From Anaerolineaceae bacterium 46_22 (GTDB lineage Bacteria > Chloroflexota > Anaerolineae > Anaerolineales > Anaerolineaceae), in NCBI GenBank assembly GCA_001508595.1, contig LGHA01000014.1, positions 1-14,970 of the forward strand: a DNA stretch of 14,970 bases. Direction: 5' to 3'. The notes beneath the pieces were generated by a model, which saw nothing but the letters and a program-made list of their open reading frames with translations, did no database searches and was not told the DNA's origin. This document shows, one piece after another, positions 217 through 13,372 of this stretch (position 1 is the stretch's first letter; every line of letters begins with the position of its first letter). The position numbers and the translations under genes are program-made.

Positions 217-2454
217 TTAAAATAAAGCTAATTGTGATGCGCGGTACTCAGGAGGGTCAATTTGGATTTGTTCAATAAACAAATCTCGGGTCAGTAACGC
301 GTTTGCGTCTAAATCCCGGATGAGACGGAATTTTACTGTGAGAAAATTGTGATCCAGTATTTCGCCTAATATTGGATCACGTTGTTTTTTGTATGCGAGA
401 AGATTTGCCCGACTGCCAGGGATAACCAGTACATTTGTCCGGGTATATCCATTATTTTCCCAAATAAGTTTTGATACGATGGCGGTTGATAACACGTGAA
501 AGCTGTAATCTGGCTTGCCATCAAGATCGTCAAGCCATAGAATTGGGTTATCCCCCCGGCTTTTATAATTCAGTCTTTCACCCATATCTAATAGAATTTT
601 ACGAATTTTGTTCACCTCAGCTTCTCTAAGTTCTGCCTTTTCGTTTTCCCGCAAACGCCAGATGTGATCTTTCTGATTGATAAGTTCAGCGTAAGAGTCG
701 AGACAGTTTAGCAAGGCTTTGTCCCCTGGTGTGAATCGGCCTGGAAAAGTTTGATAAACAAAGGTTTTAAGATCCTGGGCTGTTGTTTCTTGAACTTCAA
801 AAAGGTACTTGAGAAGGCTTTGTTCAACACGATCAATCAAGGATGTTGACTGCTTCGATGGATTTTTTAGCCTCCAATCTGTGGTTTCAATCGAGGCTGT
901 TTCTGCCCCAATTCTGATTAAGAGATCTCCTTCTGTAAACAGGGATTCAATCCATTTTTGAGTCTCGGAGGCTGCATTATTTGGGTTTTGAAGAAAAATA
1001 TCCAGGGCAAGCTTGTGTTCACTTGCTAATCCCGTGATCGCTGAAGTGTGGATTTGTTGATAACTTGCGGGTTCACCCTTTTGGTTCAGGTAATCTCTCA
1101 CAGATTGGTGGGCAATTTTAATTGCTGAAGCAGGTAGATCATGATGGCGTGGGTTTGGATTCTTATGCCAGTGGCATTGCGCTATTTGGTCATCCAAAGA
1201 ATGGGCGAAGGCCGACAGGGTCAGACCGGATGTCTCAGCTGCCATCAACGCAGCTAATAAGAGCATTGGCTCATTTTCGGCGATAAGCCCATATAGTTTT
1301 AGGTCGGGATGGTAGAAATCCTTAAAGGTATCGAAAACAGCTTTCAGTGCGTTGGTGTGCCAGTTCCAATCATAGCGCTGCCGAAAAAGGACATTTCGGA
1401 TCGGTGTTATTGCTTCCTGACCCCATATCCATCCCGTCCACAAGGCTGAAAGCGTCCAGAAAGCCTGGTTTGGTCTTGGAATAGCGGCGAAGATTGCGGA
1501 AAAGAATCCTTGATCTGGTTGCGGCGTCAGCTCTCTTATGCGTCCGGGAAACAAGAAAATCCCCGGGTCTTCTGAATAAGATTCGCCCCAGTTCTGTAGT
1601 GGGATTGGGGTCGAAAGGACTTGCCACGACTTGATTGACTCTTCGAGAACCTTCCAGAGATTCCGCTCCTGGTAAACGTTGGGAACGACAATTTGTCGTG
1701 GACGATTTCGAGGTGAGGGGTATGCCCATAAGGTATTGCCCAAATCAGCGGCGGATAGGATTAGCGCAATTAGCAGATCACGGCGTCTTGCGCTTTGATC
1801 CAGGCTGTTGAGTTTATTGATGATGGTTTGTAAGATAATGATTGGTCGTGGTGGATAAGCGTTAAGGGCGTTCAAGACCTGGGATCGCAGCTTTTCATCG
1901 TTGCCAACTATCCTGTTAAGGGCACGTGCCTGGTGGAGTTGAATGGATGGCAAGGTGCCCATGATTTCCTTGTCTTCAGATGTGACTTCCTGTTCGCCGG
2001 CAGCACCACAAAAAGGGCACTCAACCTGGGCTTGAAAGGGATAATCTGCCCCTTTTTCCCAAAGAAAGGAATCGGCTTCGATGCGGTGTTTACAATTAGC
2101 ACACCTTACGTGATACAGGCTCCGAATGTAGGGCTCCATGCGCTCATCGCCTTTGGGTGCAACTGCCAGGTCTTGCAGCGATGCGATTAATTCCGATTCC
2201 TGGGGAGCGGTGGCGATAATTTTCAGCATAAAAGCATGGATTGGGTTGTTGACGGTGGTCAGAACCTGGAATCCGGCAGATGCGATTTCTACAGGGACCA
2301 TGGGATTAAAACCAAAGGGATCAAGCACCCTGTCTCTTGGTGAGAGATATTTCAGGCACCATTCACTTACCATGCCGCTGGGGATTGGCGGTAAAAACCG
2401 CCCAAGCGGCAGGTCCGGGATTGAACCTTTGCCGGGGATATAAGGTATGTCCAT
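217..2454 (-). CDS. DNA-methylase-like protein with Zn ribbon and degenerate catalytic motif
   Basis: A 745-residue protein read from ATG at 2454. The N-terminus looks like an adenine-specific (DUF1156-like) DNA methylase. LDPFGFNP (residues 44-51) sits where the SAM-binding motif I (DPFxGxGT) would be, followed by NNPI (69-72). A Zn-ribbon is suggested by Cys118, Cys121, Cys146 and Cys149 (CANC and CPFC). Residues 319-345 read SAIFAAIPRPNQAFW and continue Trp-rich. This resembles the region around the DPPY motif IV, but with DPPY replaced by AIPRPN. The C-terminal half (about 440-745) has features I associate with these proteins (FPGRFTPGDK at 570-579, WRLRENE at 599-605) but no domain I can name. 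With both motif I and motif IV altered, methyl transfer is doubtful; binding of nucleic acid or nucleotide is possible. No restriction endonuclease is adjacent. The start lies 85 bases downstream of the GH13 gene on the same strand, so they may be cotranscribed; only a weak AG-rich site precedes the ATG. The gene call is firm, the family assignment tentative. Confidence 0.6.
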   Translation of the reverse strand: MDIPYIPGKGSIPDLPLGRFLPPIPSGMVSEWCLKYLSPRDRVLDPFGFNPMVPVEIASAGFQVLTTVNNPIHAFMLKIIATAPQESELIASLQDLAVAPKGDERMEPYIRSLYHVRCANCKHRIEADSFLWEKGADYPFQAQVECPFCGAAGEQEVTSEDKEIMGTLPSIQLHQARALNRIVGNDEKLRSQVLNALNAYPPRPIIILQTIINKLNSLDQSARRRDLLIALILSAADLGNTLWAYPSPRNRPRQIVVPNVYQERNLWKVLEESIKSWQVLSTPIPLQNWGESYSEDPGIFLFPGRIRELTPQPDQGFFSAIFAAIPRPNQAFWTLSALWTGWIWGQEAITPIRNVLFRQRYDWNWHTNALKAVFDTFKDFYHPDLKLYGLIAENEPMLLLAALMAAETSGLTLSAFAHSLDDQIAQCHWHKNPNPRHHDLPASAIKIAHQSVRDYLNQKGEPASYQQIHTSAITGLASEHKLALDIFLQNPNNAASETQKWIESLFTEGDLLIRIGAETASIETTDWRLKNPSKQSTSLIDRVEQSLLKYLFEVQETTAQDLKTFVYQTFPGRFTPGDKALLNCLDSYAELINQKDHIWRLRENEKAELREAEVNKIRKILLDMGERLNYKSRGDNPILWLDDLDGKPDYSFHVLSTAIVSKLIWENNGYTRTNVLVIPGSRANLLAYKKQRDPILGEILDHNFLTVKFRLIRDLDANALLTRDLFIEQIQIDPPEYRASQLALF

Positions 2455-10986: not shown

Positions 10987-11964
10987 ATGAAAGCCATTAA
11001 GATGATGTTGAAAGACCGCTACGATTTGCAAAACACGATAGATTTTTTCGAATTGACACCTTTGCCTTATCAAAAGACCTGTATCACCATTGGCAACTTC
11101 GATGGTGTACATCTTGGGCATCAAGCGATCGTTTCACAAATGGTCGAACAAGCCAATGCAAATGGCAAACCTTTAATCGTTATAACTTTTTGCCCCAATC
11201 CTTCTGACTTTTTTAATCCCCATATCCAATCTTTTTATCTCTCAACACCTGATGAAAAGGAAGCGCTCTTACTGAGCCTTGGTGTCGATCGCGTTCTGAC
11301 GTTCAAATTTGACCGGAATTTTGCAAATCTAAGCCCAGTCGAATTCCTGACTGGTTTGAAAGAAAAACTTGCCCTTGAGACGCTGGTTGTTGGTGAGGAT
11401 TTTGCCCTTGGTAAAAACAGACAGGGGACCATTCCAGTCCTGAAAGAAATTGGTGAAAAATTGTCTTTTAGACTTGAAGTATTACCTTCTGTCAGATTGG
11501 GCAGCAAAGATATTTCATCAACCAAGATTCGCAAGCTTTTGGACCTGGGGAAAGTTGATGAGGTTGCTGACTTGTTAGGCAGAAACTATGCTATTTCTGG
11601 CATTGTAAGCCATGGTTCAGATCGCGGTGCAAGGATTGGATTGCCAACTGCCAATATCACCCATTGGCCTAAGAAAAAACTCCCAGCCATTGGTGTCTAT
11701 GCCACCCATGTTGACATGCGGGATGAAAGTTACCGGGGAATCACCAACGTTGGCTACCGTCCTACATTTGAAAACCAGGAAAAAGCCAACATCGAAACAT
11801 TTATCTTTGATTTTAACGACGACATCTATGGCGAAGAAATGAAGGTTTCTTTTTTTGCAAGAATCAGGAATGAACAAAAATTTTCAGGTGTGGAGGCGTT
11901 TCTCGCCCAAATTGAACGAGATAAAGCAGCGGCACAAAGGATCTTCAGAAATGACGAGGAATAG
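10987..11964 (+). CDS. ribF: Bifunctional riboflavin kinase / FAD synthetase RibF
   Basis: A 325-residue enzyme that phosphorylates riboflavin to FMN and adenylates FMN to FAD. The N-terminal FMN adenylyltransferase has GNFDGVHLGH (36-45, HxGH type) and ISSTKIR (176-182). The C-terminal riboflavin kinase has GLPTAN (218-223), NVGYRPTF (254-261), and ETFIFDF starting with the probable catalytic Glu270. Both modules look complete. The start is uncertain: ATG 10987 directly follows the terminator U-run and has no Shine-Dalgarno, while in-frame ATGs at 11002 and 11005 are possible; the conserved domain starts only at about residue 30, so all fit. The stop overlaps thyX by 14 bases, which suggests coupled translation of an FAD-making and an FAD-using enzyme. 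No FMN riboswitch-like leader is visible. Confidence 0.93.
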   Translation: MKAIKMMLKDRYDLQNTIDFFELTPLPYQKTCITIGNFDGVHLGHQAIVSQMVEQANANGKPLIVITFCPNPSDFFNPHIQSFYLSTPDEKEALLLSLGVDRVLTFKFDRNFANLSPVEFLTGLKEKLALETLVVGEDFALGKNRQGTIPVLKEIGEKLSFRLEVLPSVRLGSKDISSTKIRKLLDLGKVDEVADLLGRNYAISGIVSHGSDRGARIGLPTANITHWPKKKLPAIGVYATHVDMRDESYRGITNVGYRPTFENQEKANIETFIFDFNDDIYGEEMKVSFFARIRNEQKFSGVEAFLAQIERDKAAAQRIFRNDEE

Positions 11965-13372
11965 ACGCATTTATTTACTAAGCCCACGGGATTTATCCCC
12001 TGAGACTATTGCTGTTACCTTTGCCAAAACTTCCCGTTCTCCCAAACCCTTTGACGAGATTGCTTCTGAGCTAACCGACGATCGTTCTGCCGAATTTCAT
12101 GAAAAATGGGTGGTCGGTTATGGGCATGCTTCTGTTGCTGAGCATGCCGTTTTGCACCTGGCATTGGAAAATGTTTCACGCCTGGCAATTGAGACAGTTG
12201 AAGGCAACCGTCTGGCTTCATATACAGAAAAATCCAGCCGATATCAGCAGTGGGACCAGGATGCCTTTTATGTCCCAGAAGCGCTTGCAGAAGGAAAATT
12301 AAAGCAAGTTTTTATTGATACCTGTCATTTGCTTTTTAATATCTACCAGGAAAGCATCCCAGCAGTTGAAAGCTGGTTGAAGAGGGTACGACCTCAAAAT
12401 CAACGGGAATCCGATAGTGCCTACAACCGGCGGATTCGGGGCGAGGCCGTTGATAACTGCCGGTTTTTGTTACCGGCTGCATCTTTAGCAAATGTTGGTG
12501 TAACGATCAACGCCCGCTCCCTGGAGTATGCAATTTGTAAAATGCTGAGTTCGCCATTGCAGGAAGTCAGGGAAATCGGGGAGAAATTGCGTGAGGTTGG
12601 ACAAAATGAAGCGCCAACCCTGGTTAAATATGCTGCATGCAATCAGTATTTGGTCAATACCCGGAAAAAGTTGTCAGACGATACAAAGGATCTCTCAATC
12701 GGGTTGTCTGAAGGGGGGGTGAATCTCCTCGATTGGGATAAAACCGGTGAGCAGAAGATTGTAGCTGCACTTCTCTACCGATTTGGCGCAAACTGTGATT
12801 TTCAGGCTTGTTTGGAATATGTTCAGGGTCTTTCCACAGATGAATTTATTAAACTGGCATCGGATTTGATGTCTGGTCGTGGAAAATTTGACCAGCCCTT
12901 GCGGGAATTCGAATATGCACATATGACCTTTGACCTGGTGATGGACCAGGGGGCATATTTTGAGTTCAAGCGCCATCGAATGATGACACAAACGACGGGT
13001 GCATTATCCCCGAAATTCGGATTTGCCGTTCCAAGAGCGATCACAGAAGCAGGATGTGAAGAAGACTACACAAGAGCAATGGATCACGCAGCACAAGTTT
13101 ATGATGAAATTGCCAGGCTAAATCAAGACACTGCCAGTTACATCATCCCGAATGCTTACAACCGTCGGGTCTTGTGCACGATGAACTTGAGGGAGTTTTT
13201 CAATTTCTGCCGTCTCAGGTCAGCAGAGAACGCACACTTTTCAATTCGCCGAATCTCCCAATGGATGGCAGAAAAAGTAGAGGATATTTACCCGGTTTTG
13301 GGGTCTTACCTCGATCGACCCAAAGAAGAAACCTGGCAAGATATCGAAGATCGTTACTTTTCACAAGTGTAA
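11951..13372 (+). CDS. thyX: FAD-dependent thymidylate synthase ThyX, tandem-duplicated form
   Basis: A 473-residue ThyX-family protein, twice the usual 220-260. ThyX converts dUMP to dTMP with methylene-tetrahydrofolate, FAD and NADPH. Two ThyX-like halves are visible. The N-half has HASVAEHAVLHLALENVSR (59-77), then GNRLASYTEKSSRY (85-98), aligning with the canonical RHRx7S signature but with GNR for RHR; the Ser95/Arg97 part is intact. It ends with INARSLEYAI (186-195). The C-half has EYAHMTFDLV (321-330) and RHRMMTQTTGALSP (341-354), where RHR is intact but Ser is Ala351, and then NLREFFNFCRLRSAENAHF (412-430). The two halves therefore keep complementary parts of one signature. I chose ATG 11951 (AAGGA 9 bases upstream) rather than an upstream frame from 11855 lying within ribF. 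No thyA is in the window. Activity is likely but not certain. Confidence 0.88.
   Translation: MTRNRRIYLLSPRDLSPETIAVTFAKTSRSPKPFDEIASELTDDRSAEFHEKWVVGYGHASVAEHAVLHLALENVSRLAIETVEGNRLASYTEKSSRYQQWDQDAFYVPEALAEGKLKQVFIDTCHLLFNIYQESIPAVESWLKRVRPQNQRESDSAYNRRIRGEAVDNCRFLLPAASLANVGVTINARSLEYAICKMLSSPLQEVREIGEKLREVGQNEAPTLVKYAACNQYLVNTRKKLSDDTKDLSIGLSEGGVNLLDWDKTGEQKIVAALLYRFGANCDFQACLEYVQGLSTDEFIKLASDLMSGRGKFDQPLREFEYAHMTFDLVMDQGAYFEFKRHRMMTQTTGALSPKFGFAVPRAITEAGCEEDYTRAMDHAAQVYDEIARLNQDTASYIIPNAYNRRVLCTMNLREFFNFCRLRSAENAHFSIRRISQWMAEKVEDIYPVLGSYLDRPKEETWQDIEDRYFSQV

What the first reader, a model, noticed from the sequence alone, without database searches (positions are those of the whole stretch)
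11951..13372. Tandem ThyX with the catalytic signature divided between the two halves
The protein is a two-domain ThyX. The canonical signature is RHR x7 S x R. In the N-half the aligned segment at residues 85-98 is GNR x7 S x R (GNRLASYTEKSSRY): the Ser/Arg loop is kept and RHR is lost. In the C-half residues 341-351 are RHR x7 A: RHR is kept and the Ser/Arg part is lost. The C-half also keeps the later LRSAENAH segment, where the canonical protein has its dUMP-binding Arg, while the N-half has CKMLSS there. In the ThyX homotetramer, each active site is built from residues of neighbouring subunits. Gene duplication followed by complementary loss would give an internal heterodimer with half the number of active sites, each completed by one N-half and one C-half. 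This is a clear structural hypothesis that I cannot name from described enzymes.
Basis: partly seen in the sequence, partly recalled or inferred. Interest (0 to 1): 0.75.

Follow-up and report, generated by a model that had tools for sequence, protein, structure and literature searches.

The report
Tandem ThyX with divided active site
This bacterium appears to make the DNA building block thymidylate with a double-length enzyme whose two halves have each kept a different, complementary part of the active site, so that neither half should work without the other.

Summary
The 473-residue protein (window 11951-13372, +) is two fused ThyX domains, both above the Pfam Thy1 cut-off. The N-half keeps the equivalents of T. 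maritima Ser88, Arg90, Tyr91 and Arg147; the C-half keeps Arg78-His79-Arg80 and Arg174. All eight are present in 253 of 253 non-redundant tandems not selected by motif. One viral protein found later departs at two positions.

In solved ThyX structures these two sets come from different subunits facing one site. By inference, two chains form a ThyX-like tetramer with two complete and two dead sites, each complete site built from one C-half and two N-halves. A predicted single chain has a ThyX fold in both halves; the assembly and activity are untested.

61 of 66 confirmed tandem genomes in Chloroflexota show no other thymidylate synthase candidate. One phage carries the gene directly behind a dUTPase. 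A domain-duplicated Chloroflexi ThyX was noted in 2009 as uncharacterised; division of its site was not found in my searches.

The parts
11951..13372 (+). tandem thyX gene, 473 aa (P0001)
   Evidence: Pfam Thy1 two stretches; TIGR02170 thyX 91.3 bits, cut-off 87.9; model pLDDT 91.2, pTM 0.89
11996..12619 (+). N-half Thy1 domain (donor of the Ser/Arg/Tyr loop)
12131..12133 (+). Ser61, equivalent of Mtb Ser71 / Tm Thr55 (role of subunit B, FAD contact)
   Evidence: S or T in 295 of 297 tandems; role from PMC6514825
12203..12244 (+). GNRLASYTEKSSRY, residues 85-98: RHR lost, E93, S95, R97 and Y98 kept
   Evidence: S95 and R97 297/297, Y98 Y/F 297/297
12461..12463 (+). Arg171, equivalent of Tm Arg147 / Mtb Arg172 (dUMP phosphate in a docking study)
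   Evidence: 297/297 in the N-half, not conserved in the C-half; contact from PMC9571937
12539..12541 (+). Lys197, basic residue at or next to the Arg174 column of the N-half
   Evidence: R 168, K 110 of 297; alignment uncertain by one residue
12725..13297 (+). C-half Thy1 domain (donor of RHR and the dUMP-activating Arg)
12971..12979 (+). Arg341-His342-Arg343, equivalent of Tm Arg78-His79-Arg80
   Evidence: 297/297
13217..13219 (+). Arg423, equivalent of Tm Arg174
   Evidence: 296/297, the other an X
10987..11964 (+). ribF, riboflavin kinase/FAD synthetase; overlaps the thyX start by 14 bp (context, makes the cofactor)
   Evidence: PF06574 and PF01687; a RibF match upstream in 7 of 16 loci L033-L048

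Best explanation
It is a thymidylate synthase of the ThyX type made of two fused, specialised ThyX domains. Two chains assemble into a ThyX-like pseudo-tetramer of four domains. At each of two active sites the C-half supplies the RHR motif (FAD) and Arg423 (activation of the uracil, as Tm Arg174). One N-half supplies Ser95, Arg97 and Tyr98, and probably Arg171, for dUMP. The other N-half supplies Ser61 and Arg189 for FAD. The two mirror-image sites, which would need RHR from an N-half and the loop from a C-half, are dead. Chemistry should be the usual ThyX route: methylene from CH2-THF to FAD, then to dUMP. Shown here: the two domains, the residue division, its conservation, a clade for each half, a predicted ThyX fold for both halves, and no other synthase found in most carriers examined. 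Inferred: the quaternary arrangement, the count of two sites, and activity.
For: Residue division in 253/253 non-redundant tandems not fetched by motif and 33/33 at no more than 50% identity. Of 23 columns conserved in 31 canonical ThyX, 12 are kept in at least 95% of tandems in some half; 11 of these 12 reach 95% in one half only (N: S88, R90, Y91, Y133, R147, E182; C: L13, R78, H79, R80, R174), and P199 in both (L13 has no aligned N-half column; R80 is still 68% and R174 53% in N-halves). Published subunit roles match: RHR and Arg199 from subunit A; Ser71 and Arg190 from B; Arg87, Ser105, Arg107 and Tyr108 from C (PMC6514825 section 3.1, read); Gln75 and Arg182 from monomer A, Ser88 and Gln89 from monomer B in PBCV-1 ThyX (PMC3498832, passages). 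N-halves form one clade and C-halves another, each starred. The N-half is not decaying: pairwise identity exceeds the C-half's in 453 of 528 pairs. Single-chain model pLDDT 91.2, pTM 0.89, with a ThyX fold in each half. 61 of 66 confirmed tandem genomes in Chloroflexota have neither a ThyA-family match nor a Thy1 match outside the tandem frame. Phage context: RNR-like ORF, dUTPase and tandem ThyX in a row; dCTP deaminase nearby in another.
Against: The model is of one chain, and the tool gives no coordinates, so neither assembly nor distances were checked. Arg165 (a B-role residue) is common in both halves: N 285, C 175 of 297. Mtb Arg87 (C role) is Arg in only 37% of N-halves. Which subunit Arg147 belongs to was not stated in any text I read. 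Lys/Arg197 of the N-half may mean that Arg174 is not fully lost there. L059 and near relatives keep a full RHR in the N-half, and 10 of 253 keep the first Arg. One viral sequence (L199; L200 has the same coordinates and scores) has RQR in the C-half and SSRA in the N-half. Five of the 66 genomes do hold another candidate: a PF00303 match in G190 and G272, a third Thy1 match in G039, G087 and G197.
Confidence: 0.85

Rival explanations
1. The C-half alone is the catalyst and the N-half is a structural or regulatory pseudo-domain.
Against: The C-half lacks Ser88, Arg90, Tyr91 and Arg147 equivalents (0 of 253 with S.R[YF] near RHR), while the N-half keeps them in all 253; the N-half is the more conserved half. 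Mutating S88, R90 or Y91 in Tm ThyX slows the dUMP-triggered step (PMC8316439, passages).
Confidence: 0.05
2. It is a ThyX-family enzyme for another substrate (for example UMP, as PolB) and not the cell's thymidylate synthase.
For: PolB, a ThyX paralog, methylates UMP and, less well, dUMP (PMC7226160, passages). A C. glutamicum ThyX is titled 'not required for thymidylate biosynthesis' (PDB entry title 3ge9). A thaumarchaeal ThyX-like domain fused to MSRB is predicted not to make dTMP (PMC6211008, passages). No assay exists for the tandem in what I read.
Against: No other synthase candidate in 61 of 66 confirmed Chloroflexota tandem genomes; neither a PF00303 match nor a canonical ThyX in 8 of 11 Acidobacteriota genomes; a published count gives ThyX in 6 and ThyA in 0 of 6 Acidobacteria (PMC5954106, passages); dUTPase and dCTP deaminase neighbours in phages; dUMP-contacting residues kept.
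Confidence: 0.06
3. Both kinds of site still work in some lineages: the N-half retains a self-sufficient site where RHR is kept, and the division is complete only in part of the family.
For: L059 N-half has RHR x7 S x RY; many of the P0272-P0305 rows have SHR or AHR; 10 of 253 keep the first Arg.
Against: In most members position 78 of the N-half is Asp, Gly, Ser or other; in the window's protein it is Gly. In the 253 counted, C-halves lack the loop, so an N-half RHR would have to meet a loop of another N-half, which the proposed arrangement does not offer.
Confidence: 0.15

Closest known systems
Canonical ThyX / flavin-dependent thymidylate synthase (T. maritima TM0449, M. tuberculosis, H. 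pylori)
   Same: Fold by profile and by model; catalytic and binding residues; active site built from three subunits
   Different: Canonical ThyX is a homotetramer with four identical sites; here two fused specialised domains, with two complete sites expected
Domain-duplicated ThyX of Chloroflexi noted by Valas and Bourne 2009 (PMC3224940)
   Different: The passages I read do not mention division of the active site; here also found in Acidobacteriota, phages and proteins named from other phyla
Thaumarchaeal ThyX-MSRB fusion
   Same: A ThyX-like domain inside a longer protein (PMC6211008, passages)
   Different: Fused to a methionine sulfoxide reductase, lacks Ser88, predicted not to make dTMP; not a tandem of two ThyX domains
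Trypanosomatid deoxyhypusine synthase with a catalytically dead paralog
   Same: Impaired and inactive paralogous subunits together form the active heterotetramer (PMC3663545, abstract start)
   Different: Two separate genes, unrelated enzyme; not a covalent tandem
E. coli ThyA restored from inactive mutants (Maley 1995)
   Same: Activity restored to inactive mutants, half-the-sites enzyme (title seen in a reference list only)
   Different: Unrelated fold, laboratory mutants

Membership tests
ThyX (PF02511 / TIGR02170) | Profile match above curated cut-off | tested here: met
   Pfam 179.5 bits in total, cut-off 24.8; each half above cut-off; TIGR02170 91.3 vs 87.9
ThyX (PF02511 / TIGR02170) | ThyX fold | tested here: met
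ThyX (PF02511 / TIGR02170) | Signature RHR x7 S x R within one domain | tested here: not met
   Split: RHR in the C-half only, SxR in the N-half only
ThyX (PF02511 / TIGR02170) | All key residues (R78, H79, R80, S88, R90, Y91, R147, R174) present in the polypeptide | tested here: met
   Present in the stated halves, 253 of 253, Y91 as Y or F
ThyX (PF02511 / TIGR02170) | Homotetramer with the site at a three-subunit interface | not testable with these tools
   Only a single chain could be modelled; inferred from published roles
ThyX (PF02511 / TIGR02170) | FAD-dependent dUMP methylation, complements thyA | not testable with these tools
   Only genetic context: no other synthase found in most carriers examined
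ThyA (PF00303) | Profile match | tested here: not met
   No PF00303 match in the window's genome; the Pfam scan of P0001 lists Thy1 and one sub-threshold family only
Valas-Bourne duplicated ThyX | Two ThyX domains, in Chloroflexi without ThyA | tested here: met
   the exact sequences of the 2009 paper were not compared

The most novel reading that the evidence does not exclude
The two degenerate sites are not empty relics but have been turned into something else, for example a regulatory nucleotide pocket: position 78 of the N-half is often Asp (138 of 297), and a basic residue at 197 is kept in 278 of 297. That would make this a thymidylate synthase with built-in allostery, serving as the main dTMP source in large parts of Chloroflexota and Acidobacteriota.
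Probability: 0.15. Interest if true: 0.8.

Novelty: new variant of a known kind. Interest (0 to 1): 0.64.

Why it matters
Thymidylate synthesis is essential, and in the papers I read ThyX is a drug target described as a homotetramer. If right, many bacteria depend on a ThyX in which evolution has separated the roles of the subunits. That gives a natural test of the three-subunit active-site model: each residue can be changed in one role only, which is impossible in a homotetramer. The graded N-halves (RHR, QHR or SHR, then others) also give a readable record of how the division arose.

Tried and rejected
Rejected: an alignment artefact. Profile-profile alignment and an independent joint MAFFT alignment of halves and canonical ThyX agree at the key columns. 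Rejected: a pseudogene or recent fusion in one genome; the pattern spans 253 non-redundant proteins. Not shown: f53-type tandems (L094-L097) and L093 as an independent duplication. In the first tree their N-halves stood apart, but the AU test did not reject one N clade (p 0.467); a single duplication is possible, not proven, for them. Led nowhere: P0001 patterns in viral contigs (none); paper searches for the chain role of Arg147 (none; searches give the contact, not the chain). The structure came only, as a single chain without coordinates.

Selection limits. The genome-contig loci (L103-L182) and the viral loci L183-L185 were fetched with patterns that hold RHR or the loop among others, and my extraction kept only ORFs with RHR and S.RY (81 of 83; L140 and L175 were dropped unexamined). 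They are left out of the 253, but are in the 297 and may be in the 33. Protein rows of 440 aa or less (first two protein searches) or under 420 aa (third) were left out. The 80% filter keeps the first of each near-identical set, so near-copies were not judged; P0270, for one, has a deviant C-end. Eleven later viral loci (L194-L204) are in neither count. Each protein search listed only its best 120. The structure alignment used 54 of the 361 proteins at hand, all from the first two searches or the window.

Full report
What is there. Window 11951-13372 (+) encodes a 473-residue protein. It lies near the end of a run of same-strand genes: nusA, ylxR, infB, rbfA, a DHH-family gene, truB and ribF, and is followed by a CPBP/Rce1-like membrane protein. 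The thyX start codon lies inside the end of ribF (14 bp overlap); ribF makes FAD, the cofactor of ThyX. A RibF match lies upstream in 7 of the 16 nearest tandem loci examined (L033-L048). Pfam finds Thy1 twice; each half is over the cut-off. In the window's genome (71% complete) the only Thy1 matches are these two halves, and there is no PF00303 (ThyA) match.

The motifs. The N-half reads G85-N86-R87-x7-S95-x-R97-Y98 and keeps R171; the C-half reads R341-H342-R343 and keeps R423. Profile alignment with 31 canonical ThyX (30 from Chloroflexota plus T. maritima) places these at Tm S88, R90, Y91, R147 and at R78, H79, R80, R174. The canonical proteins hold all of these at 97-100%. A separate MAFFT alignment of 17 tandems, cut into halves, with the same 31 canonical proteins gives the same columns.

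How general. I collected tandems from three protein searches, from Chloroflexota genomes, from one scan of named genomes and from viral contigs: 497 aligned rows, 297 at no more than 80% identity, 33 at no more than 50%. Leaving out loci fetched with motif-bearing patterns, 253 remain, and 253 of 253 have all eight residues in the stated halves (Y91 counted as Y or F). In the other half they are mostly not conserved: the first Arg of RHR survives in 10 of 253 N-halves, and no C-half has S.R[YF] near its RHR. Of 23 columns conserved in canonical ThyX, 12 reach 95% in tandems; 11 of the 12 do so in one half only, though R80 is still 68% and R174 53% in N-halves. The N-half is the more conserved half overall (453 of 528 pairs), which speaks against decay. 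Exceptions: L159 has an unread residue (X) at R423. Of 11 further viral loci, nine have S.RY in the N part and RHR in the C part by pattern, though in L202 and L204 the C-half profile gave no hit; two (L199, L200, same coordinates and scores) have altered motifs, and L199 reads SSRA and RQR.

Spread. Proteins whose sources name Brevefilum, Bipolaricaulia, Woykebacteria, Smithella, Deltaproteobacteria and a Thermoproteota archaeon show the same division. Most are metagenome bins, so misassigned contigs are possible.

Why the division makes sense. In M. tuberculosis ThyX each site is built by three subunits: RHR (95-97) and Arg199 from A, Ser71 and Arg190 from B, and Arg87, Ser105, Arg107 and Tyr108 from C (PMC6514825 section 3.1, read in full). 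In PBCV-1 ThyX an inhibitor is held by Gln75 and Arg182 of monomer A and Ser88 and Gln89 of monomer B (PMC3498832, passages). Mapped on the tandem, the A residues are in the C-half. The C residues, and the B residue Ser71, are in the N-half; the B residue Arg190 is mainly there (Arg in 285 of 297 N-halves but also in 175 of 297 C-halves). Inference: with 222 symmetry, put C-halves at positions A and D and N-halves at B and C. Then sites A and D are complete, and sites B and C lack both RHR and loop. Two chains give two sites, each from one C-half and both N-halves.

Points that weaken it. Arg147 is kept only in N-halves, and its Mtb equivalent Arg172 is listed among phosphate contacts in a docking study (PMC9571937, passages), but no text I read names its subunit. 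Mtb Arg87 is matched by Arg in only 37% of N-halves. The N-half has a basic residue at or beside the Arg174 column. The assembly was not modelled.

Origin. With trait columns left out, 24 N-halves form one side of a branch (100/99) and 24 C-halves another (100/100) (24 tandems chosen by me, f53-type not included). The N-halves that keep RHR, QHR or SHR (L059, P0269, P0272, P0276, P0281, P0301, P0306) group together (100/98), as do their C-halves (97/85). All 24 C-halves have lost the loop. The simplest reading, which is inference, is one duplication, early loss of the loop in the C-half, and later and gradual loss of RHR in the N-half.

Role in the cell. Among 300 Chloroflexota genomes drawn at 90% completeness or more, 264 have Thy1 and 46 have a PF00303 match. 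Nine have a long ThyA match at E below 1e-80, and none of the nine is among the 264. I confirmed the tandem as one reading frame in 66 of the 300. A search of these 66 for Thy1 shows every match inside the tandem frame except one extra match each in G039, G087 (frames of 316-319 aa) and G197; G190 and G272 have weak partial PF00303 matches; 61 of 66 have neither. In 11 Acidobacteriota genomes (11 of the 80 loci, chosen by me), all have two Thy1 hits of tandem strength, G310 also has a canonical one, and 9 of 11 have no PF00303 match. A published table gives ThyX in 6 of 6 and ThyA in 0 of 6 Acidobacteria, and ThyX in 9 and ThyA in 2 of 9 Chloroflexi (PMC5954106, passages). In phage contigs the tandem stands directly behind a dUTPase with an RNR-like gene before it (L184), and near a dCTP deaminase (L183). 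This fits dUMP as substrate. Against: ThyX-family proteins that are not thymidylate synthases exist, such as PolB (PMC7226160, passages), a thaumarchaeal fusion (PMC6211008, passages) and, by its PDB title, a C. glutamicum protein.

What is known. [quoted passage not shown] Searches of the held library for tandem, fused, duplicated or two-domain ThyX (listings, with passages of the ThyX papers that searches hit read) showed nothing on a divided active site; subscription papers are mostly not held. A 2004 PNAS paper on the three-monomer site (Leduc et al., seen in reference lists) was not held. Trypanosomatid deoxyhypusine synthase is the nearest parallel in principle (PMC3663545, abstract start).

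Verdict. A real, ancient-looking and widespread variant of ThyX. Activity and assembly are for the bench.

Noticed in passing
window 10987-11964 and 11951: FAD synthetase gene ribF overlaps the start of the FAD-dependent thyX by 14 bp; a RibF match lies upstream in 7 of 16 nearby tandem loci.
   Followed up: partly
L184:501-4500: Phage contig with RNR-like ORF, dUTPase and tandem ThyX in a row.
   Followed up: partly
L183:1464-6115: Phage contig with Mu-like portal, tandem ThyX and dCTP deaminase.
   Followed up: partly
L194-L204: Viral contigs (five of the 11 over 200 kb) carry very divergent tandem ThyX; L199 has RQR and SSRA motifs.
   Followed up: partly
L094-L097, L093: A very divergent tandem ThyX with HHHP (L094-L097) or HSHP (L093) in the N-half; one shared duplication with the main family is neither shown nor rejected.
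   Followed up: partly
G039:C13:37262-37702, G087:C7:80096-80545: Weak extra Thy1 matches (about 45 bits) in frames of 316-319 aa beside the tandem; nature unknown.
   Followed up: no
window 217-2454 (-): A 745-residue ORF without any Pfam match at 1e-5; its start 'RVLDPFGFNP' recalls DNA methyltransferases (recalled, not tested).
   Followed up: no
G300, G301, G190, G272: Weak, partial PF00303 matches in four tandem genomes, in open frames of 218-525 aa; nature unknown.
   Followed up: no
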